Below are positions 10,638-25,342 of a stretch of DNA of 36,699 bases, piece after piece. The notes beneath the pieces were generated by a model, which was not told the DNA's origin, ran no database searches, and was given only the letters and a program-made list of their open reading frames with translations. Numbering within the stretch: the stretch's first letter is position 1; each line of letters begins with the position of its first letter. Source of the stretch: a virus. Location of the stretch: positions 1 through 36,699 of IMG/VR virus record IMGVR_UViG_3300042922_000438; one strand, written 5' to 3'. The translations under genes were made by a program, and so were the position numbers.

Positions 10638-10899
10638 GGACACCAGGAACTGGTTATCACTGCAGCTCGACGTTGCGTTCTACAAAGCCTCTGACAGGTA
10701 CACGATCGGCGTGTCTGACTTTATCATCTGTGTGAGAGGAATTATGGTGTGCGCTGAGCTCAAAGCCGATATGGGCACCCCGTCGCCACAGCAGCTGTCT
10801 TTTATACGAGCATTTGAGCAGGCCGGCGCTGTGTGTGGGGTATGCTACACCCTTGGCGATGTAAAGGACCTTGTAGATAAAGCGAGGTCAATGAGATGA
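10579..10899 (+). CDS. VRR-NUC domain nuclease
   Basis: This small PD-(D/E)XK-type nuclease resembles phage VRR-NUC proteins: LDVAFYKASDRYTIGVSDFIICVRGIMVCAELKADMGTPSPQQLSFIRAFEQAG. The catalytic set is the Asp of GVSDF and the E-x-K of AELKA, with the downstream Q. The start is uncertain: ATG 10579 has GGAGGT at 10562-10567, and ATG 10555 and TTG 10501 are upstream alternatives. From 10579 it has 106 residues and overlaps the AbrB-like gene by 59 bp. It shares ATGA with the following sigma gene. VRR-NUC proteins cut branched or flap DNA, fitting the SNF2 helicase neighbour. Confidence 0.8.
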   Translation: MTTRLPSDLKRHRLEASLTEDTRNWLSLQLDVAFYKASDRYTIGVSDFIICVRGIMVCAELKADMGTPSPQQLSFIRAFEQAGAVCGVCYTLGDVKDLVDKARSMR

Positions 10900-11501
10900 A
10901 TGAAACAAAACGATTGTTGCGCTTACCGCGTACACCGGATATTCTTGACGCTGTAATAAGGTTAAACCTTGGATTGGTATGGAAGCAGATTCACAGGCTA
11001 CACCTCGATAAAGATGATGATGCGCTGAGCATTGGGTACGAAGCATTGTATAGAGCTGCCAAGACGTACGACAGTGATGTCTCGACTAGGTTCTCTACAT
11101 ACGCTACAGTCACAATCTACAACGCCTTATGTGGTCATATTCGTACGCAGCGTACCAAAAGCGCAGCTGATGAAAAAGCTACGCTTTATCTTGACAGCCC
11201 TGTAGGAGAAGGCGCAGTTCTTCGTGATGTCATATCTAATGGCGTGAACGTAGAAGAAACGTTTTTGATTACAGAGCATATTACAGAGGTGCGGCGGGCA
11301 GTTGATATTTGTTTTATGCAGCTTGGTAATAGCTCTTTGAAAAAGGCTATAGTCCAGGAGTGGATTGACTCTGGGTTCTCAATAACTCAGGAAGAAATAG
11401 CCGAGCGTGTAGGATGCACTCAGACGTACACAAGCCATGTGCTAAAAACGTTTCGGCACAAATTGGAGGTATACCTGAATGGACTTTACGGCAATAGCTA
11501 A
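10896..11501 (+). CDS. Sigma-70 family RNA polymerase sigma factor
   Basis: This is a 201-residue protein. Region 2 is visible as SIGYEALYRAAKTYDSDVSTRFSTYATVTIYNAL (about 45-80), and region 4 helix-turn-helix as ITQEEIAERVGCTQTYTSHVLKTFRHKL (about 165-195). The middle is short, so regions 3 and 1 are missing or reduced. It would redirect host RNA polymerase to phage promoters, either the middle or late set. The ATG overlaps the VRR-NUC stop (ATGA), and the stop lies inside the ligase gene. It is clearly different from the second sigma at 30444, which is much closer to sporulation sigmas. Confidence 0.8.
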   Translation: MNETKRLLRLPRTPDILDAVIRLNLGLVWKQIHRLHLDKDDDALSIGYEALYRAAKTYDSDVSTRFSTYATVTIYNALCGHIRTQRTKSAADEKATLYLDSPVGEGAVLRDVISNGVNVEETFLITEHITEVRRAVDICFMQLGNSSLKKAIVQEWIDSGFSITQEEIAERVGCTQTYTSHVLKTFRHKLEVYLNGLYGNS

Positions 11502-12810
11502 TGCGGCGATGCAGCTGGCGAACGCAACAGGCAGAAATGCAAAAATGAGGCTTCTTAAGCACTATGAAACGCTTGAGGGCTTTAAGGATGTAATGAAGTT
11601 CATCTATGACCCGGCTGTAGCTACAGGCATCGCTGACGCAAAGCTTAACAAGAAGGCTGTAGTGTACCAACATCTACAGGCTCCTGTAGTTATCGGGCCT
11701 TATGAAATGATGTCATACCTCAAGACCAATAACACTGGTTCTGACGCTGACGTATCATATTGCTGGCAGTTCATGAACCAACAGCCTACAGATGAAACGC
11801 TTTGGCTGGCACGCGCACTGGTTACACAAAACCTTCGCATAGGTGTCAACGCGTCAACACTGAACGCCGTGTATGGCAAAGGTTTTATCATGAAGATTGA
11901 CATGATGCGCGGTACTCTGTACGGTGATGTTACGAAAACTACCTGGCCTATGATCGCTACTGAAAAGCTCGACGGCCAACGCAGACTCCTGGTAAAAGAT
12001 AACGGCCGTATTACTATCTACACTCGCAACGGACTTATCGACGAGGGGTACGTAGATATTGTAACTGAAGCCATGTTCCTGCCTGATAACTATATGTACG
12101 ATGGAGAGCTGCTGGCTATTGGTAACTTTGCTGACAGCATAGAGCAGCGCCAGGTCACATCATCTCTGGCTTCTAAAGCAGGTATTAAGAAAGATCTTAC
12201 CTACAACATTTTCGATGCTGTGCCGATTGCCGCTGTGCGTGAGGGTTACTACCAAGCCTCTACCAGGCATCGCAAATTGATGTTGGCTGCATGGTTTGGT
12301 GACGTTCAAACTATTGCGCAATTCCGTAATGATGCGGAGGCAGTTGTAAAACAGTATAACCTGCCATTCACGTTTGATCTTATCAAGCCTGTACCTGTGC
12401 TTAAGATAGTGACCAGCGAGGAAGAAATGCTTGAGCTGGCAGAGAAGCTGTGGGCTGGTGGTCGTGAAGGCTTGATGCTTAACAACCCAACGGCTAACTA
12501 CCAATTCAAGCAAACCAAGGACATGCTTAAAGTGAAGCGTGTTAAGGAATACGACTTGCGCGTCATAGACATCTACGAAGGCACCAATGACTTTGTAGGT
12601 ATGATGGGCGGCGTGATCGTGGAATACAAGGGCTACAGAGTTGGGTGTGGCTCCGGGTTTTCTGTTGATCAGCGCAAGCAGTTCTGGGCAAACAAGCGTG
12701 ACATTGTAGGTAAGCTTGTAGAAGTAGAAAGCTTCGGCGAATCGAAGAATAAAACCGGTGGGCTGTCTCTGAACTGTCCTATCTTCAAGCGTATCAAAGG
12801 CGGCGCGTAA
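11479..12810 (+). CDS. lig: ATP-dependent DNA ligase
   Basis: This is a 443-residue protein with GGAGG 10-11 nt before the ATG. Motif I EKLDGQR places the adenylated lysine at K163; motif III YMYDGELLAIG, motif IV EGLMLNN and motif V TKDMLKVKRV follow, then an OB domain (DLRVIDIYEG... VEVESFGESK). The 160-residue N-terminal helical region is typical of phage ligases larger than T7's. It seals nicks in lagging-strand DNA using ATP, and sits with RNase H as an Okazaki-fragment maturation pair. Confidence 0.95.
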   Translation: MDFTAIANAAMQLANATGRNAKMRLLKHYETLEGFKDVMKFIYDPAVATGIADAKLNKKAVVYQHLQAPVVIGPYEMMSYLKTNNTGSDADVSYCWQFMNQQPTDETLWLARALVTQNLRIGVNASTLNAVYGKGFIMKIDMMRGTLYGDVTKTTWPMIATEKLDGQRRLLVKDNGRITIYTRNGLIDEGYVDIVTEAMFLPDNYMYDGELLAIGNFADSIEQRQVTSSLASKAGIKKDLTYNIFDAVPIAAVREGYYQASTRHRKLMLAAWFGDVQTIAQFRNDAEAVVKQYNLPFTFDLIKPVPVLKIVTSEEEMLELAEKLWAGGREGLMLNNPTANYQFKQTKDMLKVKRVKEYDLRVIDIYEGTNDFVGMMGGVIVEYKGYRVGCGSGFSVDQRKQFWANKRDIVGKLVEVESFGESKNKTGGLSLNCPIFKRIKGGA

Positions 12811-12813: not shown

Positions 12814-13335
12814 ATGCCGCCCATGAAGACTAAACAGCAAGCAGCCAAGCGTCGATCAATTAAGGCAGCTAAGCTTATACTTCAGGGCAATACAGTAAGG
12901 GACGTTGCGGATATGCTAGGCATGTCCAAGACGCAAATTCACAAAGACGTGACCTACAACATGAAAGAGTACGACCTTGACCTATATCGTAAGGTTCAAG
13001 CGGCTTTGGCAAATAACAAGCAAGAAGGCTATAGAAAAGCAGGGGAGGCGTTGGCAGCTATGACCAGAAGCTACAAGCGTAATCCACAGCTTGAAGAAGC
13101 TGTTCGTGAAAAGGCTGTGCAGTGTGCGCAGTTAGTAGTTAATGACAAGCTAACTATACGTGAGGTGTGTAGCAGACTTGACATGTCTAGGGCTACTGTG
13201 CATGTGTACCTTACCAAGCAGTTACCGAAATGGTATCCGTTTATGGCTGAGCAGGTCAAGCGACAGCTTGCAATTAATCTTAAAGAAGGCCGTTCATTAG
13301 GTGGCTACAATTCAACGAAAAGAGGTACAAAATGA
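12814..13335 (+). CDS. Tandem SpoIIID-like regulator (two HTH domains)
   Basis: This is a 173-residue protein made of two copies of the SpoIIID fold. Copy 1 has RSIKAAKLILQGNTVRDVAD, followed by MLGMSKTQIHKDVTYNM and a C-helix ending QEGYRKAGEAL. Copy 2 has AVQCAQLVVNDKLTIREVCS, followed by RLDMSRATVHVYLTKQLPKW and a C-helix ending EGRSLGGYNSTKRGTK. Host SpoIIID has one such unit (TVR-IAKEFGVSKSTVHKDL-ERLPE). SpoIIID is a mother-cell transcription regulator that binds DNA as a monomer, so a covalent dimer would recognise a longer or paired site. It overlaps the RNase H start (ATGA). ATG 12823 is an alternative start. Confidence 0.75.
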   Translation: MPPMKTKQQAAKRRSIKAAKLILQGNTVRDVADMLGMSKTQIHKDVTYNMKEYDLDLYRKVQAALANNKQEGYRKAGEALAAMTRSYKRNPQLEEAVREKAVQCAQLVVNDKLTIREVCSRLDMSRATVHVYLTKQLPKWYPFMAEQVKRQLAINLKEGRSLGGYNSTKRGTK

Positions 13336-14018
13336 TCTTATTCGCTATTGACGGAGCATCGCGACGTAACGGCAAACCTGACTGTATTTCTACAGGTAGT
13401 GCCATTATGCAGCGCATGGATACAACTGGTGCTTCTTATTCGCTTCGCTACCGGGTTGAGTACGAATCTACAAACCAGCGTGGTGAGATGAATGGACTCA
13501 TCTGTGCTTTACAGACACTGCTTGACTTGGATGACAGCGAAAAGGAAGTAAGTATCCTCACAGACTCTGAGTACCTGTTCAACTCCATGACCAAGCTCTG
13601 GTACCTCAACTGGGAGCTTAAAGGCTGGCTTACCAAGGATGGCAATCCTGTGAAGAACCAGGACAACTGGGAGTATATAGCTGAGCTTGTAGGTAGAGTT
13701 CAGGACCGTGGCTTTGAGATTACGTACTTCCACATTAAGGGTCACCTTTACCAAATGCCAAAGTCAGTGCAGAAGCAAATGTTCATGTGGCTCAGCGACC
13801 CTGACTCTACAAAGCAGCTGTACGCTATTCTAGTTAATGATATTATTGCTAGCTGGGATGTGCCTGAGTTTGCTGAACGCGTCGCTAATGCCAAAGCAAA
13901 GTTTGTAGAAAACCATGCGCATGAGATTGAAGATAACACTATGTCTCGTTTTATTGCGCTGAACACGATCGCAGATTTATACGCAACTTACACAATTGAG
14001 CAGGCGGTAAATAACTAG
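13332..14018 (+). CDS. rnhA: Ribonuclease HI-like
   Basis: This is a 228-residue protein. RNase HI motifs: FAIDGASRRNG with D7, NQRGEMNGLICAL with E52, SILTDSEYLFNSM with D78, the W-x-L-x-GW...GNPVKNQDNWEYI handle-like segment, and ITYFHIKGH with H138; the last acidic residue is probably D170 in LVNDIIA. About 30 residues separate H138 from D170, more than in E. coli, and a C-terminal extension of about 55 residues follows. It removes RNA from RNA:DNA hybrids such as Okazaki primers, in keeping with the ligase two genes upstream. Confidence 0.85.
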   Translation: MILFAIDGASRRNGKPDCISTGSAIMQRMDTTGASYSLRYRVEYESTNQRGEMNGLICALQTLLDLDDSEKEVSILTDSEYLFNSMTKLWYLNWELKGWLTKDGNPVKNQDNWEYIAELVGRVQDRGFEITYFHIKGHLYQMPKSVQKQMFMWLSDPDSTKQLYAILVNDIIASWDVPEFAERVANAKAKFVENHAHEIEDNTMSRFIALNTIADLYATYTIEQAVNN

Positions 14019-14105: not shown

Positions 14106-14876
14106 ATGAGCGAAGAGAAGAAGCAACTATCTGAAGGCGCTGAAGAAGAGAAGCAATTATCTACACACCTTGAGGCTCCCATGGGTTTTGAAGACGAAAA
14201 AGATGGCGACTTTATCATTCCCCGCGTTAAGATCATCCAGCTGCTCAGTCCTGAGTTTAAGGAAAAGATTGCCGATGACGGCGATATCCTTAACTCGCTG
14301 ACGAAAGAAAAGCTCAATGGTGCCGTGTTCATCCCTGTCTTCAAGTTCGACAACAACATCAAGTGGAAACCCCGCTCTGAGGGTGGCGGCATTGCCTGCA
14401 TCGCAAAGGATGCAAAGTGCGGCGTGCCTTCCGACGGTTCCCCGTTCCTCCTCTGCCGCGACTGCAAAGCTAATGAGTTTGACAACTCTAAGCAAGGCGC
14501 CGCCTCGTTCCCTACCTGCACTAAATATATTAACTTCTTCGGCTTTATCCAAGGCGAGCCGTTCCCCATCGTACTCAGCTTCGCAAAGACCAGCTACAAC
14601 GAAGGCAAGAAGCTTTACAGCCTGGCTAAGGTTACCATGCAGAACATGTGGAACCATGGCTACAAGCTGACCACCAAGAAAATGGCCAAGGGTGGCAATG
14701 AGTGGTTTGTCCCTGTAGTTACTGCTGCAGGCAAGACCTCTGACGAGGATCGTGCTTACGCCCGTCAAATGTTTGAGAACTTCCGTAACCGTGAGCTCAA
14801 GGTTGACACTGAGGAGTCTGAGGGCTCTTCTGATCAAGGCGGTACTACTGCAAGTGCTGAAGGTCAAGAGTTTTAA
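14106..14876 (+). CDS. Putative phage ssDNA-binding protein with zinc site
   Basis: This is a 256-residue protein, first gene after a strong promoter and hairpin. The acidic N-terminus is followed by DGDFIIPRVKIIQLLSPEFKEK and VFIPVFKFDNNIKWKPRSEGGGI, a pattern found in phage proteins beside replication genes. A Cys cluster (CIAKDAKCG, CRDCK, then TCTKY) could bind zinc. The C-terminal 35 residues are Glu/Ser/Gly-rich and end in GQEF, an acidic tail with terminal Phe like the partner-recruiting tails of SSB and T7 gp2.5. Placement directly before the primase-helicase fits. Assignment is inferred, without a clear OB signature. Confidence 0.6.
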   Translation: MSEEKKQLSEGAEEEKQLSTHLEAPMGFEDEKDGDFIIPRVKIIQLLSPEFKEKIADDGDILNSLTKEKLNGAVFIPVFKFDNNIKWKPRSEGGGIACIAKDAKCGVPSDGSPFLLCRDCKANEFDNSKQGAASFPTCTKYINFFGFIQGEPFPIVLSFAKTSYNEGKKLYSLAKVTMQNMWNHGYKLTTKKMAKGGNEWFVPVVTAAGKTSDEDRAYARQMFENFRNRELKVDTEESEGSSDQGGTTASAEGQEF

Positions 14877-14916: not shown

Positions 14917-17898
14917 ATGCAACAAGGGGTGAGTGTCATAAAATGGGCTGATTACCGCAATAAGATTTTACAGGACCTCGACGTTGAGGCTTTCTTTTCA
15001 AGTGAGCTAAAGAATATACAGCGTAGAGGAATGGAAATCAAAGCAGAATGTCCATTCAAGCATCTACACATGGACCAGACCGACAAAACTCCTTCACTCA
15101 CCGTCAACTTGAGGCGTGGCGTTTACATCTGCCAAACCTGTAGGACTAAGGGTAATGCTCATACATTATACAAGTTCTTATACAACCTCACTAGTGAGCA
15201 GGCTTGGCTAGAGCTAGGCGATGAGTTGAAGATCGAGAGACCGGACAGCACTAAGCCGGCTAGACCGGACATTGATGTTGATCTTGTAGCTACCTACCAC
15301 CAAGAGCTTATGAAGTTGACTGGGCCTTTGCGCCAGATATTGCGGGAGCGCCGCGGCTTCACGGATGAGACGCTTAAAAGGTTTCAGCTTGGTTGGGACG
15401 GGGAGCGCGTTACCATTCCTATCTATGATGAGTTCGGTACACTTGTGAACTTTCGTAAGTACAAGTGGAACTCTGATGGGGACCAGTTCAAACTCGTCAA
15501 CTACACCGATGAGCAGGGTAATACTTATGGTGAACTTCGTATATTCGGCATAGAAAATCTTGTCAATGACGAGGTTACTGAAGTAGTATGGTCTGAAGGT
15601 GAAACAGACCGTATCATTGCTGAGCAGTACGGCTTTCATACAGCGTGCCCTACATCTGGTGCAGGTTCTTGGAAGCCTGAGTGGATAAAGTACTTTAGGA
15701 ATAAGAAGCGCGTTTATCTTGCTCAGGATAACGACAGCGCTGGTCATATAGCTAACCAAAAGCTAGCGGCGAAGTTGTGCAGGGTAGTGGAAGTGTTTAT
15801 CGTGCAATGGCCTGACGATTTCCCTGACAAGGGCGACATCACAGACTTCTTTACCAAGTGTGGCTACACAGCTGAGGACTTCCGCAAGCTACTAGATAGC
15901 GCTAAGAAATACGTGGACCCACTTGTAGATACCTCGCTTGCAAACGAAACCGAGACTGTAGATGTTCACCTTGCCGAGTCTGCAAGTGCTAGCCTTTATG
16001 GTAAGCGTATCCAGATACCTGTAATGTTATCAGGTAAGGATACTACACCGTACCTCGCACCTAAGAAGCTCTTCGCCACTTGTGGTGATAATGCTGACTC
16101 TGAGAAGAAACTCTGCCAAAAATGTTCGCTGTGCCCCCTCGCTGGTGAAATGCGTAAAGAGTTCACCGCTGCGGATAAAGGCCTTATGAAGCTTATAAAG
16201 TGTAACGACCGACAGGCTGAAGAAGAACTTATAAATATCCTCGGCATTAATCCTAAGTGTCCTGCGTGGAAAATAGATGTTGAGCAGTACATGAACCTTG
16301 AGGAACTGCGTATGATACCTAAAGCTGACTCTAACTTCGGGTTTGCCAGGGAACATGATTACGTCGTTCGTACGGGGTATTACCTTGGTGAGCAACTCAA
16401 GACTAACAAGCGGTACACCATGGTTGGCCACATGTATCCTGATCCGCATACTATGCAGGCCACATATCTCTTTGATCGGGCGTATCCTGAGAAAGACCTT
16501 GTAGGTGACTTCGACTTATCTGAAGACATTATTGATTCACTCAAGATCTTCCAGCGAAAACCTGGCCAGTCTGTAAAAGACAAGTTTGACGAAATACACC
16601 GTGATATTGAGCGTAACGTTACCTACGTATGGGAGCGGCGTGATGTATCTACAGCTGTTGATCTTGTGTACCATACAGCATTGAATTTTTATTTCCAAGG
16701 ACAGTTCGTAAGAAGAGGCTGGGGAGAACTCCTGATAATTGGCGACTCTGGCCAGGCTAAGTCTACAATGGTGCAACACATCATGGAGCACTATAAACTT
16801 GGCGAAATGCACTCAGGCGAGTCATCTCGTAGAACAGGCCTCGTGTACAACATGCAACAGAATAACAAGCGCTGGTTCTTGGTATGGGGGGCGTTTCCAC
16901 TTAATGACGGAGGACTTGTTTGTATCGACGAGCTATCGGGTATCTCGGAAGACGATCTTGCCTCAATGTCAGACGTACGATCCTCAGGTATTGCAAAGAG
17001 TACAGGAGTTATTACAGCAGAAACTACAGCGAGAACTCGAGCTATCTATATATCGAATCCTCGCAACGGGCAGCAGCTCAAAACCGAGACCCACGGCGTA
17101 TCCTCAATCCTTAAGCTGTTCGGTAAGACCGAGGACGTACGACGTTTGGACCTGGCCGTGTCTGTAGCTTCTGGCGATATCGATGAAGCATTGATCAATG
17201 TCGACATTGAAACTATCCCTGAGGTTCCGCATGTTTACAATTCAGACATCTGCAATACTCGAGTACTATGGGCTTGGTCTCGAAGACCTGAGGATATCAA
17301 GTTCACCCCAGAAGCCGTTTCTACAATTCTTGAAAGAGCAACGGAAATGGGACGAAAGTATAGTTCAAAGGTGCCCCTTGTGGAAGCCGCTGATCAGCGG
17401 ATTAAAATTGCAAGACTTTCAGTATCAGCTGCTGCATGCGTATTTTCCACGGGTGACGGGAAAGACGTTGTTGTTGAAAAAGATCATGTCGACTTTGTAG
17501 TTGAGTTCCTGAACAAGATCTACAGCAGTAAGAGTATGGGCTACGACAAACTCAGTGAAACTGTTTATGCTCAGAGCGATGCCTCTAGAGATAACATTAC
17601 TGAGCTGGTCAAGAAGTTCCTCATCCTGCCGCTGCCTGATCACAACGAAATGATTGACGTGCTCTACAAGCTTGCTTACTTCAATAGGAATACCCTTGAA
17701 GATTACACTGGTCTGTCACGCGATGACCTAAAACTCTTACTTAAGTTCCTCACCATGAACCACCTTGTAGAAAAGTACAAGAGTGACTACAGACGTTTGC
17801 CACTTGGTACAGAGTTCATGGACTACATGATTGCACACCGCGTGACTGACAAAGAGGTTGAAGAGGCGCGTAAGAATCATTATAGCCCTGAATTTTAA
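14917..17898 (+). CDS. Primase-helicase fusion: CHC2 zinc finger, TOPRIM, MCM-like AAA+ helicase
   Basis: This is a 993-residue protein. CHC2 zinc finger: C45, H49 (or H51), C72 and C75. TOPRIM: WSEGETDR (about 226) and LAQDNDSAG (about 270). A second Cys cluster follows in the middle (TCGDNADSEKKLCQKCSLC). The C-terminal half is an MCM-type AAA+ ATPase: Walker A GDSGQAKS (609-616), close to the MCM signature GDPG-AKS; Walker B VCIDE (D671, E672), YISNPRNG sensor (about 711) and EDVRRLDL arginine-finger region. Bacterial and phage helicases at forks are usually DnaB-like, so MCM fused to primase is unusual. The start could also be GTG 14929, which has AAGGGG close by. Confidence 0.85.
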   Translation: MQQGVSVIKWADYRNKILQDLDVEAFFSSELKNIQRRGMEIKAECPFKHLHMDQTDKTPSLTVNLRRGVYICQTCRTKGNAHTLYKFLYNLTSEQAWLELGDELKIERPDSTKPARPDIDVDLVATYHQELMKLTGPLRQILRERRGFTDETLKRFQLGWDGERVTIPIYDEFGTLVNFRKYKWNSDGDQFKLVNYTDEQGNTYGELRIFGIENLVNDEVTEVVWSEGETDRIIAEQYGFHTACPTSGAGSWKPEWIKYFRNKKRVYLAQDNDSAGHIANQKLAAKLCRVVEVFIVQWPDDFPDKGDITDFFTKCGYTAEDFRKLLDSAKKYVDPLVDTSLANETETVDVHLAESASASLYGKRIQIPVMLSGKDTTPYLAPKKLFATCGDNADSEKKLCQKCSLCPLAGEMRKEFTAADKGLMKLIKCNDRQAEEELINILGINPKCPAWKIDVEQYMNLEELRMIPKADSNFGFAREHDYVVRTGYYLGEQLKTNKRYTMVGHMYPDPHTMQATYLFDRAYPEKDLVGDFDLSEDIIDSLKIFQRKPGQSVKDKFDEIHRDIERNVTYVWERRDVSTAVDLVYHTALNFYFQGQFVRRGWGELLIIGDSGQAKSTMVQHIMEHYKLGEMHSGESSRRTGLVYNMQQNNKRWFLVWGAFPLNDGGLVCIDELSGISEDDLASMSDVRSSGIAKSTGVITAETTARTRAIYISNPRNGQQLKTETHGVSSILKLFGKTEDVRRLDLAVSVASGDIDEALINVDIETIPEVPHVYNSDICNTRVLWAWSRRPEDIKFTPEAVSTILERATEMGRKYSSKVPLVEAADQRIKIARLSVSAAACVFSTGDGKDVVVEKDHVDFVVEFLNKIYSSKSMGYDKLSETVYAQSDASRDNITELVKKFLILPLPDHNEMIDVLYKLAYFNRNTLEDYTGLSRDDLKLLLKFLTMNHLVEKYKSDYRRLPLGTEFMDYMIAHRVTDKEVEEARKNHYSPEF

Positions 17899-17909: not shown

Positions 17910-18887
17910 ATGGCAATTCTTAGCAAGTTACCTTGCAAGGTTATCTCTACAGTTACTCAGCAAGAAGATGAAGAAGCGTGGCTTAAGGCGCGGAGCCGCG
18001 GCATTGGTGGTTCTGAGATCGGTGCTATCTGCGGCGTCAACAAATACTCCTCTCCTCTGTTGGTTTACCTTAAGAAAGCGCAAGGCTACGAGCCCGAGTT
18101 TTCTGACGCTTCTAAGGAGCGTATGCATTTCGGTCATATGCTTGAGCCTATCGTGGCGCAGGAGTTTGAGGCCCGCACAGGTCAGCGTGTTGCCGAATGT
18201 CCGGCTACTTTGCAGCACAAGAACTATGCCTACATGCTTGCCAACATTGACCGTTTCATTGTAGACGAGGAAGGCAATCCTGTAGGTGTCCTGGAGTGCA
18301 AAACCTCTGATGCTCGCTTGCTCAAGGACTGGGAGGAAGGAGAGTTCCCACGCTCTTACTACTACCAGCTTCAGTGGTACCTGCTTATCACTGGCCTTCA
18401 GTACGGCGCCATTGCATGCCTTGTAGGTGGTAACAGGTTTATCTACTACGAGGTGTATGCGGACGATGATCTACAAGAGGAAATGGTTCATGCTGCTGTT
18501 AACTTCTGGAACGACCATGTGCTTAAGCTTGTAGAACCTGCCATCTCTGGTAACGAAGCCGACAGTGAGTATATGAAGATCAAGCATCCTGAAGCCGTTG
18601 AAAAGAAGGAAGTATCTTACACCGATGTTGACATTGACGCTAAGGCGTCGGAAATTGTTGAACTGAAGCGTAACATCAAAGACCTTGAGGCCGAGCTCGA
18701 GGAAAAGATAAACACTTTCAAAGCGCTCATGGGTGATGCTGAGATTGCTAACACCATCAACCATACCATCAAATGGTCCAATCGCAAACAGAAGCGTGTA
18801 GATACCGAGCGCTTCAAGGTAGAGTATCCTCATATCTACAAGGCTGTTGAGAAGACCATCGAGTTCCGAGTGTTCACAGTTAAGTAA
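17910..18887 (+). CDS. YqaJ-type recombination exonuclease
   Basis: This is a 325-residue protein with AGGAGG before the ATG. Residues 20-210 match YqaJ/lambda-exonuclease nucleases: RSRGIGGSEIGAICGVNKYSSP, MHFGHMLEPIVAQEF, ANIDRFIVDEEGNPVGVLECKTS (Asp and the E-x-K active site) and YYYQLQWYLLITGL. A helical, charged C-terminal region (LKRNIKDLEAELEEKINTF) follows. It degrades one strand of dsDNA to feed strand annealing. No annealase is recognisable next to it, so the SSB-like protein at 14106 could serve as partner (inference). Confidence 0.9.
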   Translation: MAILSKLPCKVISTVTQQEDEEAWLKARSRGIGGSEIGAICGVNKYSSPLLVYLKKAQGYEPEFSDASKERMHFGHMLEPIVAQEFEARTGQRVAECPATLQHKNYAYMLANIDRFIVDEEGNPVGVLECKTSDARLLKDWEEGEFPRSYYYQLQWYLLITGLQYGAIACLVGGNRFIYYEVYADDDLQEEMVHAAVNFWNDHVLKLVEPAISGNEADSEYMKIKHPEAVEKKEVSYTDVDIDAKASEIVELKRNIKDLEAELEEKINTFKALMGDAEIANTINHTIKWSNRKQKRVDTERFKVEYPHIYKAVEKTIEFRVFTVK

Positions 18888-18938: not shown

Positions 18939-19094
18939 ATGGACTGGCGTGATAATCGTATAAAGCCAACGTTTTGGACAGTGTCGCTTCAGACATACCA
19001 ATATCTAATAGAAACAGGAGTGGTAAAAGATGCAAGTAAAGTTCGAACTCATAAAGGAAAACGCAAGGCTGCCAGAAAGAGGTCACGACATTGA
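18939..19094 (+). CDS. Small basic protein overlapping dut
   Basis: This 51-residue open frame has a strong AGGAGGTG 7-8 nt before its ATG. It begins MDWRDNRIKPTFWTVSLQTY and ends in a very basic tail (THKGKRKAARKRSRH). It overlaps the dUTPase gene by 65 bp. The strong ribosome site argues for translation; the basic tail could bind nucleic acid, or could simply be the out-of-frame reading of dut. No family is recognised. Confidence 0.5.
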   Translation: MDWRDNRIKPTFWTVSLQTYQYLIETGVVKDASKVRTHKGKRKAARKRSRH

Positions 19095-19536
19095 TGTAGG
19101 CCTGGATGTGTACACACCTGCAGCAGGTATTCTTCGCCCCGGCGTTAACACTATCCCTCTCGGTATCACCTGCCATGTGCCTGTAGGTTATGGCGCATTT
19201 CTGTATCCAAGGACGGGTATGGCGTCTGGCAAAGCGGTATGGGACATGGAAGTTGTTGCTAGCTCTTTGGGTGGTAAGACATTAGTGTCCGACGTTACCA
19301 GCGATGCAGTATCTATCATCGCTCACATGCCACCTATTGATCCAGGGTATACCGGTGAGATTAACGCTATTGTAACTAACAACAGTAATCTGCACATCAG
19401 ATATCCACTGCACACGCGGTTCGGCCAGCTTGTATTCTATCCCATTGCATACGCTGTACCTACACTGGCTGTAGATACATCTCGCGGTACTGGAGCATTT
19501 AACAGCACTGGAGCACAAGAAATAAAGAGGACGTGA
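19030..19536 (+). CDS. dut: dUTP diphosphatase (trimeric dUTPase)
   Basis: This hydrolyses dUTP to dUMP, preventing uracil incorporation and supplying the ThyA-family enzyme. Five motifs are present: HDIDVGLDVYTP (I), LYPRTGMAS (II), DPGYTGEINAIVTN (III), RFGQLV (IV) and RGTGAFNSTG (V; usual form RG-GGFGSTG). At 168 residues it is slightly long because of an insertion between motifs II and III. GGAGTGG precedes the ATG. It sits with dNMP kinase and dCMP deaminase in one operon. Confidence 0.9.
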   Translation: MQVKFELIKENARLPERGHDIDVGLDVYTPAAGILRPGVNTIPLGITCHVPVGYGAFLYPRTGMASGKAVWDMEVVASSLGGKTLVSDVTSDAVSIIAHMPPIDPGYTGEINAIVTNNSNLHIRYPLHTRFGQLVFYPIAYAVPTLAVDTSRGTGAFNSTGAQEIKRT

Positions 19537-19540
19537 TGTA

Positions 19541-19798
19541 TTGAAGCTGGCTAAGGGTAGCGTATCAGACAAGTGCATAGTGCACGAAAGTAATAATATT
19601 CATCGGTTTGAAACATACGTGGCAGTTGGTTTTGATCCTGCACCAAGCGTACATTATGAAGCAGACATCATATCATTATTCGAAGCAGCCATCATCCTCC
19701 GTAGCCTGTGCAACCAGCAATACAACGCTATGACGAAAGAAGAGCAAAAGCAATTCGATAGCGACTGGCAAGAATTATACGGAGGTGTACAACCATGA
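19541..19798 (+). CDS. Hypothetical protein (TTG start)
   Basis: This is an 85-residue protein starting at TTG 19541, with GAGG about 11 nt upstream; the nearby ATG 19536 is in another frame and stops at once. The N-terminal half looks beta (CIVHESNNIHRFETYVAVGF) and the C-terminal half helical and acidic (NAMTKEEQKQFDSDWQELY). Its stop overlaps the ATG of the dNMP kinase (ATGA), so it belongs to the operon. Function unknown. Confidence 0.65.
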   Translation: MKLAKGSVSDKCIVHESNNIHRFETYVAVGFDPAPSVHYEADIISLFEAAIILRSLCNQQYNAMTKEEQKQFDSDWQELYGGVQP

Positions 19799-20268
19799 TC
19801 TACATTGTAGAAGGTCCGGATGGTGCGGGCAAAACAACATTGGTTAATCGGTTGCAAGAAATGTTTGGCTATCCTGTGAAGCATCGCAACAAGCCTAAGA
19901 ACGAAGAAGAAAAGCAAATGATGCTGGCCGGCTACGCTTATGACATTGCAACTGGTGGTAACTTCATTTACGACCGCTGCTGGTATTCTGAGATGGTGTA
20001 TGGTCCTGTGATGCGCGATGCTAGTGTAATTACCGCTGACCAGATGGTAGCCCTCGAAGAAGCAATTGTTCGTAATGGCGGTGGCATCATAATCCACTGC
20101 ACAGATGCTACAAATATCTTGTGGAACCGGTGCACATCCCGCGGTGAAGACTACATTACATCTCGCGATACGCTTGACGATATTCGTGAAGGCTTCGAGC
20201 AATTATTGCATCATACACGTCATCTACTGCCGGTGGTTCGTTATGAGCTTAGTAAGAACATGCACTAA
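19795..20268 (+). CDS. Deoxynucleoside monophosphate kinase (thymidylate-kinase-like)
   Basis: This is a 157-residue P-loop kinase. Walker A GPDGAGKTT lies at residues 7-15, YDRCWYSEMVYG is the base-binding DRxxxS-type segment, and RGEDYI resembles the LID region. It is shorter than cellular Tmk (about 210), as in phage dNMP/deoxynucleoside kinases. It would phosphorylate dTMP or a modified dCMP made by the ThyA-family enzyme, or act as a nucleoside kinase. Sequence alone does not settle the substrate. Confidence 0.8.
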   Translation: MIYIVEGPDGAGKTTLVNRLQEMFGYPVKHRNKPKNEEEKQMMLAGYAYDIATGGNFIYDRCWYSEMVYGPVMRDASVITADQMVALEEAIVRNGGGIIIHCTDATNILWNRCTSRGEDYITSRDTLDDIREGFEQLLHHTRHLLPVVRYELSKNMH

Positions 20269-20896
20269 CTGCTGCGCTACTGCACCAGAAGGAGATCGCG
20301 CTACATTCTGCAAAGTGTGTGGCGCTCTCTACGATCTGTTGTACTGTAGCAAATGTGAAACATTCAAGGAACCTGACGGATTTTATTTCTACAAGAACGG
20401 CAAAAGTGCTGGGCACAAATACTCATACTGTAAGGCCTGTAGTAACAAGCGCCTCGGTGATTACCGTGATAAACAGACAACTGAGATGCGCATCGCTAAG
20501 CAGCAAGTAACGTTTGCTAACCGCCGCAGCGAAAGAGCGGATGACCTTGATACATGGAAAGAGTTCATGGCAAAGGTACCGTTCAGGGCCCTAACTGAGC
20601 AAGAGTGGCTTGAGGCCTGCTCGCTGTTCAAGGGCTGCGCGATATGCGGCTCAGAGACAATAGAGTTGCGCATGCTGTTCTTAAATGCAGATAATGGTGG
20701 TAGGTATACACCATGGAACGTGTTCCCATCATGCTCGTCTTGTGGCACTACCTACCAGAAAGAGCGTAACCCGTTTCTACGCATGGACCACTGGGTACAC
20801 GGCAAATTTCACGGTGCTGGTATGAATGCCGAAAGGCAACGTAAACTACTCGCATACCTTGTAGGTAGAGCGACGAAAGAAGGCGTGACATGGTAA
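20243..20896 (+). CDS. Zinc-binding HNH-like protein
   Basis: This is a 217-residue protein starting at ATG 20243 with GGTGG upstream; its first 26 bases overlap the kinase gene. It has four Cys pairs: CTNCC, CKVCG and CSKCE near the N-terminus and CKACSNKRLGDY, then a C-terminal CAICGS...NADNGGRYTPWNVFPSCSSCG segment that resembles a degenerate HNH/recombination-endonuclease-VII zinc fold (asparagine-rich loop between two CxxC). The usual catalytic His is not evident. It may be a DNA-binding protein rather than an active nuclease. Confidence 0.6.
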   Translation: MSLVRTCTNCCATAPEGDRATFCKVCGALYDLLYCSKCETFKEPDGFYFYKNGKSAGHKYSYCKACSNKRLGDYRDKQTTEMRIAKQQVTFANRRSERADDLDTWKEFMAKVPFRALTEQEWLEACSLFKGCAICGSETIELRMLFLNADNGGRYTPWNVFPSCSSCGTTYQKERNPFLRMDHWVHGKFHGAGMNAERQRKLLAYLVGRATKEGVTW

Positions 20897-21039
20897 TTCA
20901 CTACACTGCTGTTAACAAGCATCTGGAGCGTATCGCTGAGCGTGGTAAGTTAACCAAGCGCCAGATTCGTATGGCGCATAAGATCAACCTGTGGCACATG
21001 ACTGAAGTAAGGAGAGCCGGCCTATGGATGCAAGGGTAG
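20890..21039 (+). CDS. Small basic helical protein
   Basis: This 49-residue frame (MVIHYTAVNKHLERIAERGK, then LTKRQIRMAHKINLWHMTEVRRAGLWMQG) overlaps the preceding stop by 7 bp and the dCMP deaminase start by 16 bp, the overlapping style of the operon. It is predicted helical and basic. There is no clear ribosome site, so coupling to the previous gene would be needed. Function unknown. Confidence 0.5.
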   Translation: MVIHYTAVNKHLERIAERGKLTKRQIRMAHKINLWHMTEVRRAGLWMQG

Positions 21040-21422
21040 AAGTATTTAAGCGATTCACTCTTGATCTCGCCTCATTATCAAAATGTAAGCAGCGCGGCGT
21101 TGCAGCTATTATAACCGATAGCGAAATGTCTCAGGTGCATAGCATTGGAATTAACGGTGGGCCGAAGAAACTTATCAACTGCATGTGTGATTCAGAGGGT
21201 AAGGGAGGCTGCTTGCATGCAGAAGATAACTGTATCGCAAAGAATAGCTACATGGGCCCTGATAAGATTATGTTCATTACTCTGGCCCCATGTAAGCAAT
21301 GCGCAGCTAGAATCATTAATACACCCGGCGGTTTTAGCCGTGTTTACTACTTCGAAGACTGGAAGGAAGATGTAGGGTTGCGTCTCCTCCGCGCCGCTGG
21401 GATTCAGGTGATAAAGATATGA
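21024..21422 (+). CDS. dCMP deaminase (zinc-dependent cytidine deaminase fold)
   Basis: This is a 132-residue protein with catalytic GGCLHAEDNCIAK (zinc ligand H65, proton shuttle E67) and TLAPCKQCAARI (zinc ligands C90 and C93), as in phage dCMP deaminases. It converts dCMP to dUMP. GGAGAG precedes the ATG. Short Cys-containing segments (CMCDSEGKGGC) may bind a second zinc as in T4 Cd. Together with dUTPase it would feed dUMP to thymidylate synthesis, or lower dCMP if modified cytosine is made. Confidence 0.88.
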   Translation: MDARVEVFKRFTLDLASLSKCKQRGVAAIITDSEMSQVHSIGINGGPKKLINCMCDSEGKGGCLHAEDNCIAKNSYMGPDKIMFITLAPCKQCAARIINTPGGFSRVYYFEDWKEDVGLRLLRAAGIQVIKI

Positions 21423-21625
21423 GTTGCATAATATGCGGCAGTGGTAATAACGCTCTTGGGTATAGACGTGATTATGTAGTTTGCTGGACCTGCATTCGTA
21501 TGCTTAACATAGCCCTAGATGACTTCGCTACCAGGCGCTTGACTGGCGGTAAGTACGAAATATCTGCTACACCTGATCAAGCTAGAAACTGGCTTAGTAA
21601 ACCAAGACAGGAGTGGCCAATATGA
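21419..21625 (+). CDS. Small zinc-ribbon protein
   Basis: This is a 68-residue protein with CIICGS and CWTCIR giving a C-x2-C...C-x2-C zinc ribbon in the first 26 residues, and a helical C-terminus (TPDQARNWLSKPRQEW). The ATG overlaps the deaminase stop (ATGA). Likely a DNA- or protein-binding accessory factor; no specific family recognised. Confidence 0.65.
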   Translation: MSCIICGSGNNALGYRRDYVVCWTCIRMLNIALDDFATRRLTGGKYEISATPDQARNWLSKPRQEWPI

Positions 21626-21915
21626 TAGTACATCGTCTTGTGCACGAAATCCGCGAGCGAGATCCTACAGAAACTTTAGTGCTAGTTATGTTCGATTCGC
21701 TGCATACTTCGCAGTGGGCATTGATACGCGACCATGGATGCACTGTAGTTACTGAGGGCGGACTTAAGCTGGTTGCGGATAGTAAGTTCACATACATCTA
21801 CTGTGTGAACAATGGTCGTGTAAGTAAAGATGTTGTGGCCTTTCTTAAAACACTAAAGAAGGATCGTCTGTCTGCGGTGTACCTGAATAGTACGTACTTC
21901 TGGAACGAGGTGTAG
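21622..21915 (+). CDS. Hypothetical alpha/beta protein
   Basis: This is a 97-residue protein. ATG 21622 has AGGAG 8 nt upstream and overlaps the previous stop (ATGA); GTG 21613 overlaps the ribosome site and is rejected. Alternating hydrophobic strands (ETLVLVMFDSL, CTVVTEG, FTYIYCVNN) and helices suggest a small Rossmann-like fold. There are no catalytic motifs. Confidence 0.65.
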   Translation: MIVHRLVHEIRERDPTETLVLVMFDSLHTSQWALIRDHGCTVVTEGGLKLVADSKFTYIYCVNNGRVSKDVVAFLKTLKKDRLSAVYLNSTYFWNEV

Positions 21916-21918
21916 CTA

Positions 21919-22002
21919 ATGGCCAAAGCTTTTATATTCATGCTGTTTGTGCTTCTGTTACTAGGTATTGGCATCGGCTGGTTAATAGGAGGCGCTTTAT
22001 GA
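21919..22002 (+). CDS. 27-residue single-span membrane mini-protein
   Basis: ATG 21919 has GAGGTG 7 nt upstream. Almost the whole product is one membrane helix (FIFMLFVLLLLGIGIGWLIGG), and its stop overlaps the Nudix ATG (ATGA). The AGGAGG inside its 3' end also serves the Nudix gene. It resembles small phage membrane peptides that act on the host envelope. Function unknown. Confidence 0.6.
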   Translation: MAKAFIFMLFVLLLLGIGIGWLIGGAL

Positions 22003-22400
22003 AAAGGTATAACTGCATTATTGTGTACCACCATGCCATCGACCGTGTGCTTGTATGCAACCGTACTAAGGAGCCATACAACGGCAAACGTAACTTTGTA
22101 GGTGGCAAGGTTGAAGAATATGATGCTAGTTCTATGACTGCTGCATACAGAGAGCTACACGAAGAAACTGGAATCACAAGCGACCTTATTGACTTGAAGC
22201 ATATTATGGACTTTACGTACTATGATTCTGGCATAATTCTGGAATGCTTCGCTGGTAAGCTTAAAGGCTCCGTAGAACTAGCTGAGAGTGAGCATCCATT
22301 AGAATGGGTACACTCTGAGTGGTATTACTTTAATGATATAGACTGGTACGCTGGAGAGTGCAATATGGCTCACATGCTGCTGAATGTGAAGCTGCCATGA
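21999..22400 (+). CDS. Nudix hydrolase
   Basis: This is a 133-residue protein with GGKVEEYDASSMTAAYRELH running into EETGI. The catalytic REL-x-EE-x-G core (R51, E52, E55, E56) is intact, but the upstream Glu of the canonical Gx5E step is Asp/Ala with one extra residue. Nudix enzymes hydrolyse nucleoside diphosphates linked to another group, such as (d)NTPs, NAD or RNA caps. In this neighbourhood nucleotide-pool sanitation or removal of dCTP is plausible. Confidence 0.8.
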   Translation: MKRYNCIIVYHHAIDRVLVCNRTKEPYNGKRNFVGGKVEEYDASSMTAAYRELHEETGITSDLIDLKHIMDFTYYDSGIILECFAGKLKGSVELAESEHPLEWVHSEWYYFNDIDWYAGECNMAHMLLNVKLP

Positions 22401-22729
22401 ACGACAAATTATTCGCATATCTTGTAGACACCGCGTCGCCTCATGACGGCTTTCTAGATGTTGTTGTAGTTCCTGGGTCACAGTACCTCTCCTACGATCA
22501 GTTCTGTTGGCTGCAGAAACTTGACTACAAAGTTATCTTAGCTACTAGCCCACGGGTAGCGGAAAAATTGCGCGGTGTATTGATAAGCCGGTTGTTCATA
22601 TACTGTGAACACATGTGCGAGGTGAATACGCTAATTGTGGCGCGTCACCGCCTCGCTAGAGTAAAGGCGGGTGTATTGTATACCGCGTTCAAAGAAGATG
22701 TAAAGTGGAAAGAGACAAAAGATTTTTAA
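22397..22729 (+). CDS. Hypothetical protein at the end of the nucleotide operon
   Basis: This is a 110-residue protein. ATG 22397 overlaps the Nudix stop (ATGA), and GTG 22358 upstream is a weaker alternative. Strand/helix alternation (GFLDVVVVPGSQYL, DYKVILATSPRVAEKL, RLFIYCEHM, VNTLIVARHRLARV) gives a small alpha/beta fold, loosely similar in layout to the 97-residue protein at 21622. No motif is recognised. It is the last gene before the promoter and element B. Confidence 0.65.
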   Translation: MNDKLFAYLVDTASPHDGFLDVVVVPGSQYLSYDQFCWLQKLDYKVILATSPRVAEKLRGVLISRLFIYCEHMCEVNTLIVARHRLARVKAGVLYTAFKEDVKWKETKDF

Positions 22730-22736
22730 AACAACG

Positions 22737-22765
22737 TGTACGCGGATGTAAAAATGTGATATAAT
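22737..22765 (+). promoter_or_regulatory. Promoter upstream of element B
   Basis: TGTACG (22737-22742), 17-bp spacer, and TGA + TATAAT (22760-22765), an extended -10. Transcription would start near 22772, just before the hairpin. Confidence 0.78.
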
Positions 22766-22773
22766 ATAATTAA

Positions 22774-22787: not shown

Positions 22788-22794
22788 AAATTTT

Positions 22795-23338: not shown

Positions 23339-25342
23339 TTGGCTGTTCAACCAAAGCGTAAGTCTGTAATAAAGAAAGGCGTAAACTTTTCTTACGACAA
23401 AGCTACGTTTGCGCAGCATAAGTACGAGAACTTTTATGAGACTGACAGAGCTGAAGATGTGCTGGCGCTTATCAAGCCTTTCGAGTTCCTAGGTCGTAAG
23501 TTCATATGCCTTGATACGGAAGATTATCCAACAGCACTGAAAAATCATGAGATTCCCAAAGGGATGGTTCGCCGCTGGATAGGCACAGGCAAGAAGGCTA
23601 AGCCTGTAGATCTTCCGTTCTGCATGAGCTTCTGTGATGGTGTGAATGCGATTACTCTGTATGACTCGCTGGCAAATGGCTACAAAGAAATTAAGAAGAT
23701 GGCCGTGCTGCTGGAAGATCCTACAATCGAGAAGATCTTTCATAACACCAAGTTTGACATGCACATGCTTGCTAACATCAAGATTAAGATGAGAGGCAAG
23801 TTGCATGATACCACGCCTATGGCGAAGATCACCAATGAAAACCGGCCAGACTTTACGCTGTGGGGCCTCGCCGAGCGCCGCAAATGGGGTATAGTGAAGT
23901 TCGAGTATATGGTGGATGCCTACAAGGATACACACAAGGTAACAGACTATCGTATGATACCCCGCGAGCTGATGACGCAATACGCAAATGCTGACGTTAT
24001 GAATCTGTTTAATCTGTTCATGGAAGAATATCAGATTCTTATTGCAGAAGATCTTGTAGGTATTTACGAGCAAGAGCTTGAGGTAATGCTTGCCTGTTGG
24101 GTTATGGAACGTGTAGGTATGCAATCAGACCCTAACTACGAGAAACCGCTTAAGCAAGAGCTGCGTCAGTTAACAGATGATGCTGAAGCTGCTGTGTACG
24201 CTGAAGCCGGTGTGTTTAATATGAACTCAGGCAAGCAAGTATTCACTGTACTTATTAAGCTGGGTGTAGATCCTAAGTTGATTAAGATCAATCCAGATAC
24301 AGGCAACCCAATACTGGATAAGTATGAGCTTGAGAAGCTTGGTGAAGTGCACGGCATTCCTATCGTTAAAAAGATGCTGGATTACAAGAAGTTTGAAAAG
24401 CTCTTAGGAACGTATGCCGAAGGAATCTATGACCAGCGTGATAGTCTTGGTAAGGTGCACAGTAATATCAACCAGACGGAAGCAACTACAGGTCGTATGT
24501 CTATTACCAAGCCGGCCCTACAGACACTGCCTAAGAAAGACAAACGGATACGGAAAATCTTCGTCCCGACATCTGATGAATATGAACTGTGGTTCATGGA
24601 CCTTGACCAGATTGAGTATCGGATATTTGCTCACTACGCTAAGGCCAAGGGGCTCATTGAAGCTATCAAGGCGGGCCATGACGTCCATGCTGCTACAGCA
24701 GCTATTCTGTACAACAAACCTATCGAGGAAGTAACAGAAGAAGAGCGGGGCAGAGGCAAGACGATTAACTTCTCATTGCTGTATGGCCAAGGTAATGAAG
24801 CCTCTATGAACAGCCTTAAGATGTCTATGGCTGAAACTATTCGCTTCAAGCGTCACTACTTTGCCATGATGCCTGAGATGGAACCGTTCATCCAGTCTGT
24901 GCATGCTGTGATTCAGGCCCGCGGCTTTGTAAGGAATCTGTTCGGTAGGAGACGGCGCCTGAAGAAAGAGGAGGCCTACAAGGCACCTAACGCTTTGATC
25001 CAGGGCTGCGCCGCCGATTACATCAAGAACAAGATGACCCTGATGTACCGGTACTTGCTGGCCTACAAGTTCAAGACTCGTCTCATAAATATCGTACACG
25101 ACGAATTGATTCCTGAGGTTCATAAGTCTGAGCGGCACATCGTACCAAAGCTGCGGTGGCTGTTGTCTGACTTCGAAAACTTCCGGTGCCCCATCACCGC
25201 CGGAGCTGAGCGTGGAGGACCTTCATGGGGCGAGAAAGTTACTGTAGAAGACGTCGGCTTCGAACCTCTTACAGAGGAAGAGATGTCCAAAACCAAGGAA
25301 GTCGACGTATGGGACGGCTCTGTATTTGACTTGGTTGCCTAA
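23339..25342 (+). CDS. polA: DNA polymerase, family A, with 3'-5' exonuclease
   Basis: This is a 667-residue protein starting at TTG 23339, 9 nt after GGAGG. The exonuclease domain has ICLDTEDYP (D59, E61), FHNTKFD (D140) and YANADVMNL. The polymerase domain has motif A FMDLDQIEYRIFAHYA (D421), motif B RGKTINFSLLYGQG and motif C IVHDELIPE (D588). There is no 5'-nuclease domain. This is the phage replicative polymerase. Motif A reads DLDQIEYR where DxSQIELR is usual. Confidence 0.95.
   Translation: MAVQPKRKSVIKKGVNFSYDKATFAQHKYENFYETDRAEDVLALIKPFEFLGRKFICLDTEDYPTALKNHEIPKGMVRRWIGTGKKAKPVDLPFCMSFCDGVNAITLYDSLANGYKEIKKMAVLLEDPTIEKIFHNTKFDMHMLANIKIKMRGKLHDTTPMAKITNENRPDFTLWGLAERRKWGIVKFEYMVDAYKDTHKVTDYRMIPRELMTQYANADVMNLFNLFMEEYQILIAEDLVGIYEQELEVMLACWVMERVGMQSDPNYEKPLKQELRQLTDDAEAAVYAEAGVFNMNSGKQVFTVLIKLGVDPKLIKINPDTGNPILDKYELEKLGEVHGIPIVKKMLDYKKFEKLLGTYAEGIYDQRDSLGKVHSNINQTEATTGRMSITKPALQTLPKKDKRIRKIFVPTSDEYELWFMDLDQIEYRIFAHYAKAKGLIEAIKAGHDVHAATAAILYNKPIEEVTEEERGRGKTINFSLLYGQGNEASMNSLKMSMAETIRFKRHYFAMMPEMEPFIQSVHAVIQARGFVRNLFGRRRRLKKEEAYKAPNALIQGCAADYIKNKMTLMYRYLLAYKFKTRLINIVHDELIPEVHKSERHIVPKLRWLLSDFENFRCPITAGAERGGPSWGEKVTVEDVGFEPLTEEEMSKTKEVDVWDGSVFDLVA

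What the first reader, a model, noticed from the sequence alone, without database searches (positions are those of the whole stretch)
14917..17898. Primase fused to an MCM-like helicase in a bacterial phage
CHC2 and TOPRIM domains precede an AAA+ domain with the MCM Walker A form GDSGQAKS and ISNP sensor. Phage primase-helicases usually carry a RecA-type (DnaB/gp4) helicase. MCM homologues are known in some Bacillus mobile elements, but the fusion with TOPRIM primase and a second central Cys cluster is notable.
Basis: partly seen in the sequence, partly recalled or inferred. Interest (0 to 1): 0.65.

Follow-up and report, generated by a model that had tools for sequence, protein, structure and literature searches.

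The report
Bacterial primase fused to MCM helicase
A virus of bacteria carries one protein that joins the bacterial kind of DNA primase to the ring helicase that archaea and eukaryotes use (MCM), and relatives of this virus carry the same helicase joined to the unrelated archaeal kind of primase, so phages have exchanged the primase while keeping the motor.

Summary
ORF 14917-17898 (993 aa) is a CHC2-TOPRIM primase followed by a complete MCM-type helicase: OB fold with a Cys4 cluster, AAA+ domain with helix-2 insert and PS1 hairpin, arginine finger, lid and C-terminal winged helix. Profiles and folds match MCMs and not other AAA+ clades. Both halves keep their catalytic residues across 82 relatives. 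The fusion is not unique: 134 sampled loci carry it, and about 47 deposited phages have it, annotated without mention of MCM. Another 63 loci carry the same MCM behind an archaeo-eukaryotic primase (BcMCM-type); none carries both. In MCM trees the window's clade groups with these AEP fusions (99/98), so the fused primase was exchanged at least once; the best tree implies two exchanges, but one is not rejected (p = 0.24). Fourteen related records have one MCM and no DnaB-type helicase. Most likely it is the phage's replicative primase-helicase: a 3'-5' ring whose N-terminal primase primes the displaced strand. I found no published description.

The parts
14917..17898 (+). TOPRIM-MCM primase-helicase gene, 993 aa
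14959..15246 (+). CHC2 zinc ribbon (residues 15-110; C45, H51, C72, C75)
   Evidence: Pfam PF01807 E 4.9e-9; conservation over 82 relatives
15295..15501 (+). DnaG-like RNA-polymerase (basic) region, residues 127-195 (R164, R180, K192)
   Evidence: NCBIfam dnaG partial match; weak PF08275; R180 82/82, K192 80/82
15580..15906 (+). TOPRIM domain, residues 222-330 (catalytic E229, D271, D273)
   Evidence: PF13155 E 8e-7; E229 and D271 82/82, D273 81/82; PDB profile hits to DnaG and T7 gp4 primase
15952..16506 (+). MCM N-terminal tier: OB fold, residues about 346-530
   Evidence: AF2 models; Foldseek alignments of 550-670 columns to whole MCMs
16081..16260 (+).
   Evidence: 78-82 of 82 TOPRIM-MCMs; C389, C403, C448 in 23/23 AEP-MCMs
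16573..17166 (+). MCM AAA+ core, residues 553-750
   Evidence: PF00493; PDB profile searches
16741..16764 (+). Walker A GDSGQAKS, residues 609-616
   Evidence: K615 82/82 and 23/23
16831..16890 (+). helix-2 insert hairpin (strands 644-649 and 652-657)
   Evidence: AF2 model; alignment with archaeal MCM
16915..16932 (+). Walker B LVCIDE, residues 667-672
   Evidence: E672 82/82
16987..17031 (+). pre-sensor-1 hairpin, residues 691-705
   Evidence: AF2 strands 692-695 and 701-704; K/R within it in 81/82
17056..17058 (+). sensor 1 Asn714 (ISNP)
   Evidence: 82/82
17143..17145 (+). arginine finger Arg743 (RRLD, aligned to the SRFD motif of MCM)
   Evidence: 82/82 and 23/23
17308..17451 (+). lid / sensor-2 helices, residues 798-845 (R828, K830, R833)
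17629..17802 (+). C-terminal winged helix, residues about 905-962
   Evidence: AF2 models; PDB profile match reaches the end of SsoMCM 4fdg_B
14106..14876 (+). conserved upstream neighbour, Pam3_gp34-like, shared with AEP-MCM contigs L122 and L123
   Evidence: PF23977
8720..10450 (+). SNF2-family helicase, part of the same replication module
11479..12810 (+). ATP-dependent DNA ligase
13332..14018 (+). RNase H
17910..18887 (+). YqaJ-type recombination nuclease
23339..25342 (+). family A DNA polymerase with 3'-5' exonuclease, presumed replicase

Best explanation
The protein is the phage's replicative primase-helicase. Its C-terminal two thirds form a hexameric MCM-type ring that unwinds the fork by translocating 3'-5' on the leading-strand template. 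Its N-terminal CHC2-TOPRIM part makes RNA primers. Because the primase is joined to the N-tier, which in MCM/CMG leads at the fork, it would sit where the displaced lagging-strand template emerges, rather than behind a 5'-3' ring as in T7 gp4. A family A polymerase, ligase and RNase H from the same module would extend, process and seal. The MCM ring is a stable chassis whose fused primase has been exchanged between two unrelated classes (TOPRIM and AEP). Shown by computation: architecture, intact motifs, MCM fold, absence of DnaB-type helicases in related records, and the existence of both primase versions. Inferred: hexamer, polarity, priming, which strand is primed, and essentiality.
For: Domains. 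MCM fold: top 50 PDB matches all MCM, E about 1e-23, TM about 0.59. Profile-profile: archaeal MCM E 4e-21 against YifB 1e-5 and MoxR 2e-3. Catalytic residues conserved in both halves: TOPRIM E229/D271/D273 and Walker A K, Walker B E, sensor N, finger R in 81-82 of 82. Fourteen related phage records, five of them named isolates, each hold one MCM match and no DnaB_C, while DnaB_C rings in all 14 cellular controls. The gene lies in a replication module with PolA, ligase, RNase H and an SNF2 helicase. The homologous AEP-MCM type is represented by BcMCM, a demonstrated 3'-5' helicase with primase and polymerase activity (PMC4538821). CMG runs 3'-5' on the leading strand, NTD first (PMC12593628). 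Primase exchange: 134 TOPRIM, 63 AEP, 0 both; the window's clade plus all AEP-MCMs on one side of a branch, 99/98.
Against: No biochemistry is known to me for any TOPRIM-MCM. The PS1 lysine is not fixed at one column. The phage MCMs lie on a very long branch from archaeal MCMs, so mechanism transfers only by analogy. No helicase loader or origin was identified. The window is a 36.7-kb fragment. AEP monophyly, which would mean a single exchange, is not rejected (p = 0.43 and 0.24).
Confidence: 0.8

Rival explanations
1. The ATPase is a non-MCM AAA+ protein (Mg-chelatase/ComM or MoxR type) that only looks like MCM around the P-loop.
For: The Pfam MCM model also matches all 14 control genomes, so the Pfam hit alone does not discriminate.
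Against: Profile-profile E 4e-21 for archaeal MCM over 464 columns against 1e-5 for YifB and 2e-3 for MoxR; fold matches include the N-tier, 550-670 columns, top 50 all MCM; RR[LF]D arginine finger and lid motif align with MCM.
Confidence: 0.02
2. It is an accessory enzyme for restart or repair of stalled forks, and the host DnaB-DnaG primosome replicates the phage.
For: A restart role has been proposed for BcMCM (PMC4538821). Absence of a phage DnaB does not exclude use of the host's.
Against: The phage carries its own polymerase, ligase, RNase H and nucleotide-metabolism genes; every one of 14 related records keeps exactly one such gene; both catalytic halves are under strong constraint.
Confidence: 0.14
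3. The helicase half works but the TOPRIM part no longer primes and serves for DNA binding or loading, as in animal Twinkle.
For: C75 of the zinc ribbon is replaced in 14 of 82 relatives, and Pfam finds no CHC2 in the Krampus and Wollypog proteins.
Against: E229, D271 and D273 are 81-82 of 82, and K192 and R180 are 80 and 82 of 82; the window protein keeps all four zinc ligands.
Confidence: 0.1
4. Evolution: a single TOPRIM-AEP exchange, with the window's TOPRIM clade simply the nearest TOPRIM relative of a monophyletic AEP-MCM lineage.
For: AU tests do not reject AEP monophyly: p 0.43 on AAA+ with archaeal outgroup, 0.24 on the full module. With the N-terminus alone, TOPRIM-MCM phages score best (most 96-113 bits) against 91 or less for the other phage primases listed, which suggests shared descent of the TOPRIM part.
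Against: 0% of bootstrap trees of the full module make AEP one clade; AEP row L124 groups with the window clade at 93/91 and shares a PS1 motif of the form GI-x-K-x-x-GV-x-TAET with it.
Confidence: 0.4
5. The fusion is an assembly or binning artefact.
For: The window is a metagenomic virus contig.
Against: Same fusion in 134 loci and in complete isolate genomes such as BSP7, Krampus, Youna2 and Wollypog.
Confidence: 0.005

Closest known systems
BcMCM and other AEP-MCM proteins of Bacillus prophages (PHROG 18685; phage vB_BboS-125)
   Same: Homologous MCM module over its whole length (about 31% identity; hhalign E 3e-170), in a replication module that also holds a helicase gene and PolA.
   Different: N-terminal primase is archaeo-eukaryotic (PriS/PriL-like), not TOPRIM.
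TOPRIM-MCM proteins of cultured phages: Microbacterium Krampusvirus, Arthrobacter Wollypog, Bacillus BSP7/BSTP, Weizmannia Youna2, Paenibacillus SV21
   Same: Same full-length architecture, 24-31% identity.
   Different: Annotated only as primase or primase/helicase, some wrongly as 'DNA primase small subunit'; their MCM falls outside the group formed by the window clade and the AEP-MCMs.
T7 gp4 and other DnaG-DnaB-type phage primase-helicases
   Same: N-terminal TOPRIM primase fused to a replicative ring helicase; T7 gp4 is among the PDB profile hits for the primase half.
   Different: The helicase is an MCM-type AAA+ ring, not RecA-type; DnaB_C is absent.
Archaeal/eukaryotic MCM (SsoMCM 4fdg, 8x7t)
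   Same: N-tier OB and zinc site, AAA+ with helix-2 insert and PS1, arginine finger, winged helix.
   Different: Has a fused primase; no MCM N-terminal A domain identified; about 15% identity over structural alignments and a very long branch in the tree.
PrimQH-MCM of bacterial integrative plasmids (PMC5862659)
   Same: Primase fused to an MCM-family helicase in a bacterial mobile element.
   Different: The primase is AEP; relation of that MCM to this one was not tested here.

Membership tests
MCM helicase (SF6 AAA+) | AAA+ core with Walker A/B and sensor 1 in MCM form | tested here: met
MCM helicase (SF6 AAA+) | helix-2 insert and pre-sensor-1 beta hairpins | tested here: met
   Predicted hairpins 644-657 and 692-704
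MCM helicase (SF6 AAA+) | conserved lysine at the tip of the PS1 hairpin | tested here: inconclusive
   K/R somewhere in the hairpin in 81/82, but at shifting columns (K694 22/82, K697 51/82)
MCM helicase (SF6 AAA+) | arginine finger in SRFD-like motif | tested here: met
   RRLD/RRFD; R743 82/82 and 23/23
MCM helicase (SF6 AAA+) | N-tier OB fold with zinc ligands | tested here: met
   OB strands 364-524 in the model and Cys4; zinc geometry itself not measured
MCM helicase (SF6 AAA+) | C-terminal winged helix | tested here: met
   Residues 909-960 in the model; profile match to the end of SsoMCM
MCM helicase (SF6 AAA+) | closer to MCM than to other AAA+ clades | tested here: met
   hhalign and fold searches
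MCM helicase (SF6 AAA+) | hexamer, 3'-5' unwinding | not testable with these tools
   needs the purified protein
DnaG-type (TOPRIM) primase | CHC2 zinc ribbon | tested here: met
   PF01807 E 5e-9
DnaG-type (TOPRIM) primase | TOPRIM catalytic Glu and DxD | tested here: met
   E229, D271, D273 conserved
DnaG-type (TOPRIM) primase | C-terminal DnaB-interaction domain | tested here: not met
   Replaced by the MCM module
DnaG-type (TOPRIM) primase | primer synthesis | not testable with these tools
   needs an assay
T7 gp4-type primase-helicase | RecA-type (SF4/DnaB_C) helicase domain | tested here: not met
   No DnaB_C in the protein or in 14 related records
BcMCM / AEP-MCM (PHROG 18685) | homologous MCM module | tested here: met
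   phrog_18685 positions 378-1022, E 1.8e-101
BcMCM / AEP-MCM (PHROG 18685) | AEP primase N-terminus | tested here: not met
   No DNA_primase_S in the protein; N-terminus matches the TOPRIM HMM only

The most novel reading that the evidence does not exclude
One MCM ring lineage of bacterial phages has exchanged its fused primase between the two non-homologous primase classes more than once, including a return from AEP to TOPRIM (or repeated gain of AEP) around the window's clade. That would make primase class a swappable part of a 3'-5' MCM replisome in bacteria, with a bacterial TOPRIM primase working on the lagging strand from the leading (N-tier) face of the ring.
Probability: 0.45. Interest if true: 0.72.

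Novelty: new variant of a known kind. Interest (0 to 1): 0.58.

Why it matters
Textbook replisomes pair TOPRIM primases with 5'-3' RecA-type rings and AEP primases with 3'-5' MCM rings. Here a TOPRIM primase is covalently joined to an MCM, in phages of culturable bacteria, next to sister proteins that carry the AEP version. This allows a direct experiment on how primase class, helicase polarity and strand choice depend on one another, and shows that the primase part can be exchanged while the motor stays. It also gives a likely function to PHROG 18685 (labelled unknown) and corrects 'DNA primase small subunit' labels that were probably carried over through the shared MCM half.

Tried and rejected
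The Pfam MCM hit as sole evidence: rejected, it rings in E. coli and all other controls. Other AAA+ clades: rejected by profile and fold tests. Assembly artefact: rejected, isolate genomes carry the fusion. Deciding whether the window's TOPRIM was inherited or re-acquired: a TOPRIM tree with four other phage primases left its place unresolved (76/87, long outgroup branches), and AU tests left one versus two exchanges open. Literature: no held paper found describes a TOPRIM-MCM fusion; the 2016 survey of viral replication proteins (Kazlauskas et al.) and the BcMCM papers are not held, so prior mention cannot be excluded. Plasmid search: only three matches, two of them phage-like bacterial plasmids and one an archaeal plasmid MCM. 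Viral structure library: only one match close to the PDB scores, I1TI69, unnamed. tRNA and Rfam scans of the window: nothing.

Full report
Observation. The ORF at 14917-17898 encodes 993 residues. Pfam finds a CHC2 zinc ribbon (15-110), a Toprim_2 domain (227-301) and an MCM P-loop domain (568-720), each above its curated cut-off. GDSGQAKS lies at residues 609-616 and ISNP at 712-715. Because the Pfam MCM model also rings in all 14 control genomes, E. coli included, I did not rely on it.

MCM or another AAA+ clade? A profile of the phage module matches archaeal MCMs at E 4e-21 over 464 columns, against 1e-5 over 167 columns for YifB/Mg-chelatase and 2e-3 for MoxR. PDB sequence searches return MCMs, plus DnaG and T7 gp4 primases for the primase half. 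An AlphaFold2 model of the whole protein has mean pLDDT 87.6 and one of residues 339-993 has 90.3 with pTM 0.83. In Foldseek the top 50 PDB matches of both are MCM subunits (E about 1e-23, TM 0.58-0.60 for the best archaeal-type chains, 550-670 aligned columns). The model shows OB-fold strands 364-524, the hairpin of the helix-2 insert (644-657), the PS1 hairpin (692-704), lid helices and a winged helix (909-960). The alignment places R743 (RRLD) on the SRFD arginine finger of archaeal MCM.

The 'second Cys cluster'. C389, C400, C403 and C448 are conserved in 78-82 of 82 TOPRIM-MCMs. C389, C403 and C448 are in 23 of 23 AEP-MCMs. They sit in the predicted OB fold, as the zinc site of the MCM N-tier does, so they are most simply that site. 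I did not measure their geometry.

Catalytic state. Across 82 full-length TOPRIM-MCMs: E229 82, D271 82, D273 81, K192 80, R180 82; Walker A K615 82, Walker B E672 82, N714 82, R743 82. Both halves look active. The PS1 lysine is the one MCM feature that is not fixed.

How common. tblastn finds 153 phage records with a match, 47 covering at least 80% of the query, most at about 30% identity: Microbacterium Krampusvirus, Arthrobacter Wollypog, Bacillus BSP7/BSTP, Weizmannia Youna2, Paenibacillus. They are annotated mostly 'DNA primase/helicase', 'DNA primase' or 'DNA primase small subunit'. IMG/VR gave 12 close relatives (64-69%) and 332 with a profile. The fusion is thus widespread but not described as TOPRIM-MCM in the papers I could search. 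The most relevant survey (Kazlauskas 2016, known to me from memory) is not held.

The same MCM with another primase. Phage vB_BboS-125 and a B. velezensis plasmid align to the query only from residue about 340. Their N-termini are archaeo-eukaryotic primases (DNA_primase_S, with a large-subunit-like part). In 202 sampled loci, 134 have the TOPRIM type, 63 the AEP type, none both, and 5 are truncated or unassigned (some contigs are counted twice because two searches fetched them, and 114 representatives at 85% identity remain). In PHROGs, AEP-MCM is phrog_18685 from end to end, whereas TOPRIM-MCMs match phrog_47 (primase) in front and phrog_18685 behind. The AEP type is almost certainly the family of BcMCM, a tested 3'-5' helicase with primase and polymerase activity (PMC4538821); the BcMCM record itself was not held, so this identification is an inference from architecture, length and host.

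Trees. On the AAA+ domain, phage and archaeal MCMs separate (100/100) by a very long branch; the window's clade (window, L034, L046, L050, L069) and all AEP-MCMs form one group (99/94). On the full module (604 columns, no archaea) the same group has 99/98, and the window's clade pairs with AEP protein L124 (93/91). The best tree therefore needs two changes of primase class, but holding AEP together costs only 2.0 and 8.4 log units and is not rejected (p 0.43 and 0.24). At least one exchange must have happened if the MCM modules are homologous; two are favoured, not shown. The TOPRIM tree cannot say whether the window's TOPRIM was inherited or regained. With the N-terminus alone, TOPRIM-MCM phages are the best matches among phage records, most at 96-113 bits against 91 or less for others listed. 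The direction of exchange depends on a root I do not trust.

Context. Neighbours are an SNF2 helicase, ligase, RNase H, a Pam3_gp34-like protein directly upstream, a YqaJ nuclease downstream, dUTPase and PolA. The Pam3_gp34-like gene is conserved in nearly all of the window's clade and also in AEP contigs L122 and L123. The SNF2 gene recurs in AEP loci L124 and L174 and in several TOPRIM loci. Fourteen related records, five of them named isolates, have exactly one MCM and no DnaB_C, while DnaB_C rings in every cellular control. AEP occurs only in the AEP-type records.

Mechanism. Shown: architecture, fold, intact motifs, lack of a DnaB-type helicase. Inferred: a hexameric ring moving 3'-5' (from homology to MCM and BcMCM), RNA priming by the TOPRIM part, and placement of the primase at the leading face, because CMG travels NTD-first on the leading strand (PMC12593628) and the primase is joined to the N-tier. 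In T7 gp4 the lagging strand itself threads through a 5'-3' ring, so the geometry here should be the reverse.

Verdict. Observation confirmed; interpretation supported with corrections. It is a new variant of a known kind (phage primase-MCM fusion), interesting mainly because one MCM module occurs with two unrelated primases.

Noticed in passing
L121:4635-8825: AEP-MCM of a Fermentibacteria MAG has an insert of about 343 aa exactly after the Walker A lysine, ending VVTHN|S: a probable intein at the MCM P-loop.
   Followed up: partly
L123:8001-9743: In a 175-kb AEP-MCM contig the AEP primase part contains an intein (Intein_splicing E 3.5e-13 and LAGLIDADG_3).
   Followed up: partly
L120:5691-9344: TOPRIM-MCM split into two ORFs at query residue about 544/552 with about 610 nt between; intron, insertion or frameshift not determined.
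   Followed up: no
window 6962-7393, 12814-13335, 10896-11501, 30444-30962: YyaC/DUF1256 spore-protease-like gene, SpoIIID-like HTH gene and two sigma-70-like factors, suggesting a spore-forming Bacillota host and possible interference with sporulation. A 73% identical protein lies in a contig binned as Bacteroidales (L113), so the host is not settled.
   Followed up: partly
H27, H43 (phages BSTP5, Youna2): TOPRIM-MCM proteins are annotated 'DNA primase small subunit', an AEP term; Pfam finds CHC2 and TOPRIM in the Youna2 protein.
   Followed up: yes
PHROG 18685: Labelled 'unknown function' but matches AEP-MCM primase-helicases end to end.
   Followed up: yes
window 19030-30432: Nucleotide-metabolism set: dUTPase, dNK-like kinase, dCMP deaminase, NUDIX, DHFR, HD-domain protein, thymidylate synthase.
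   Followed up: no
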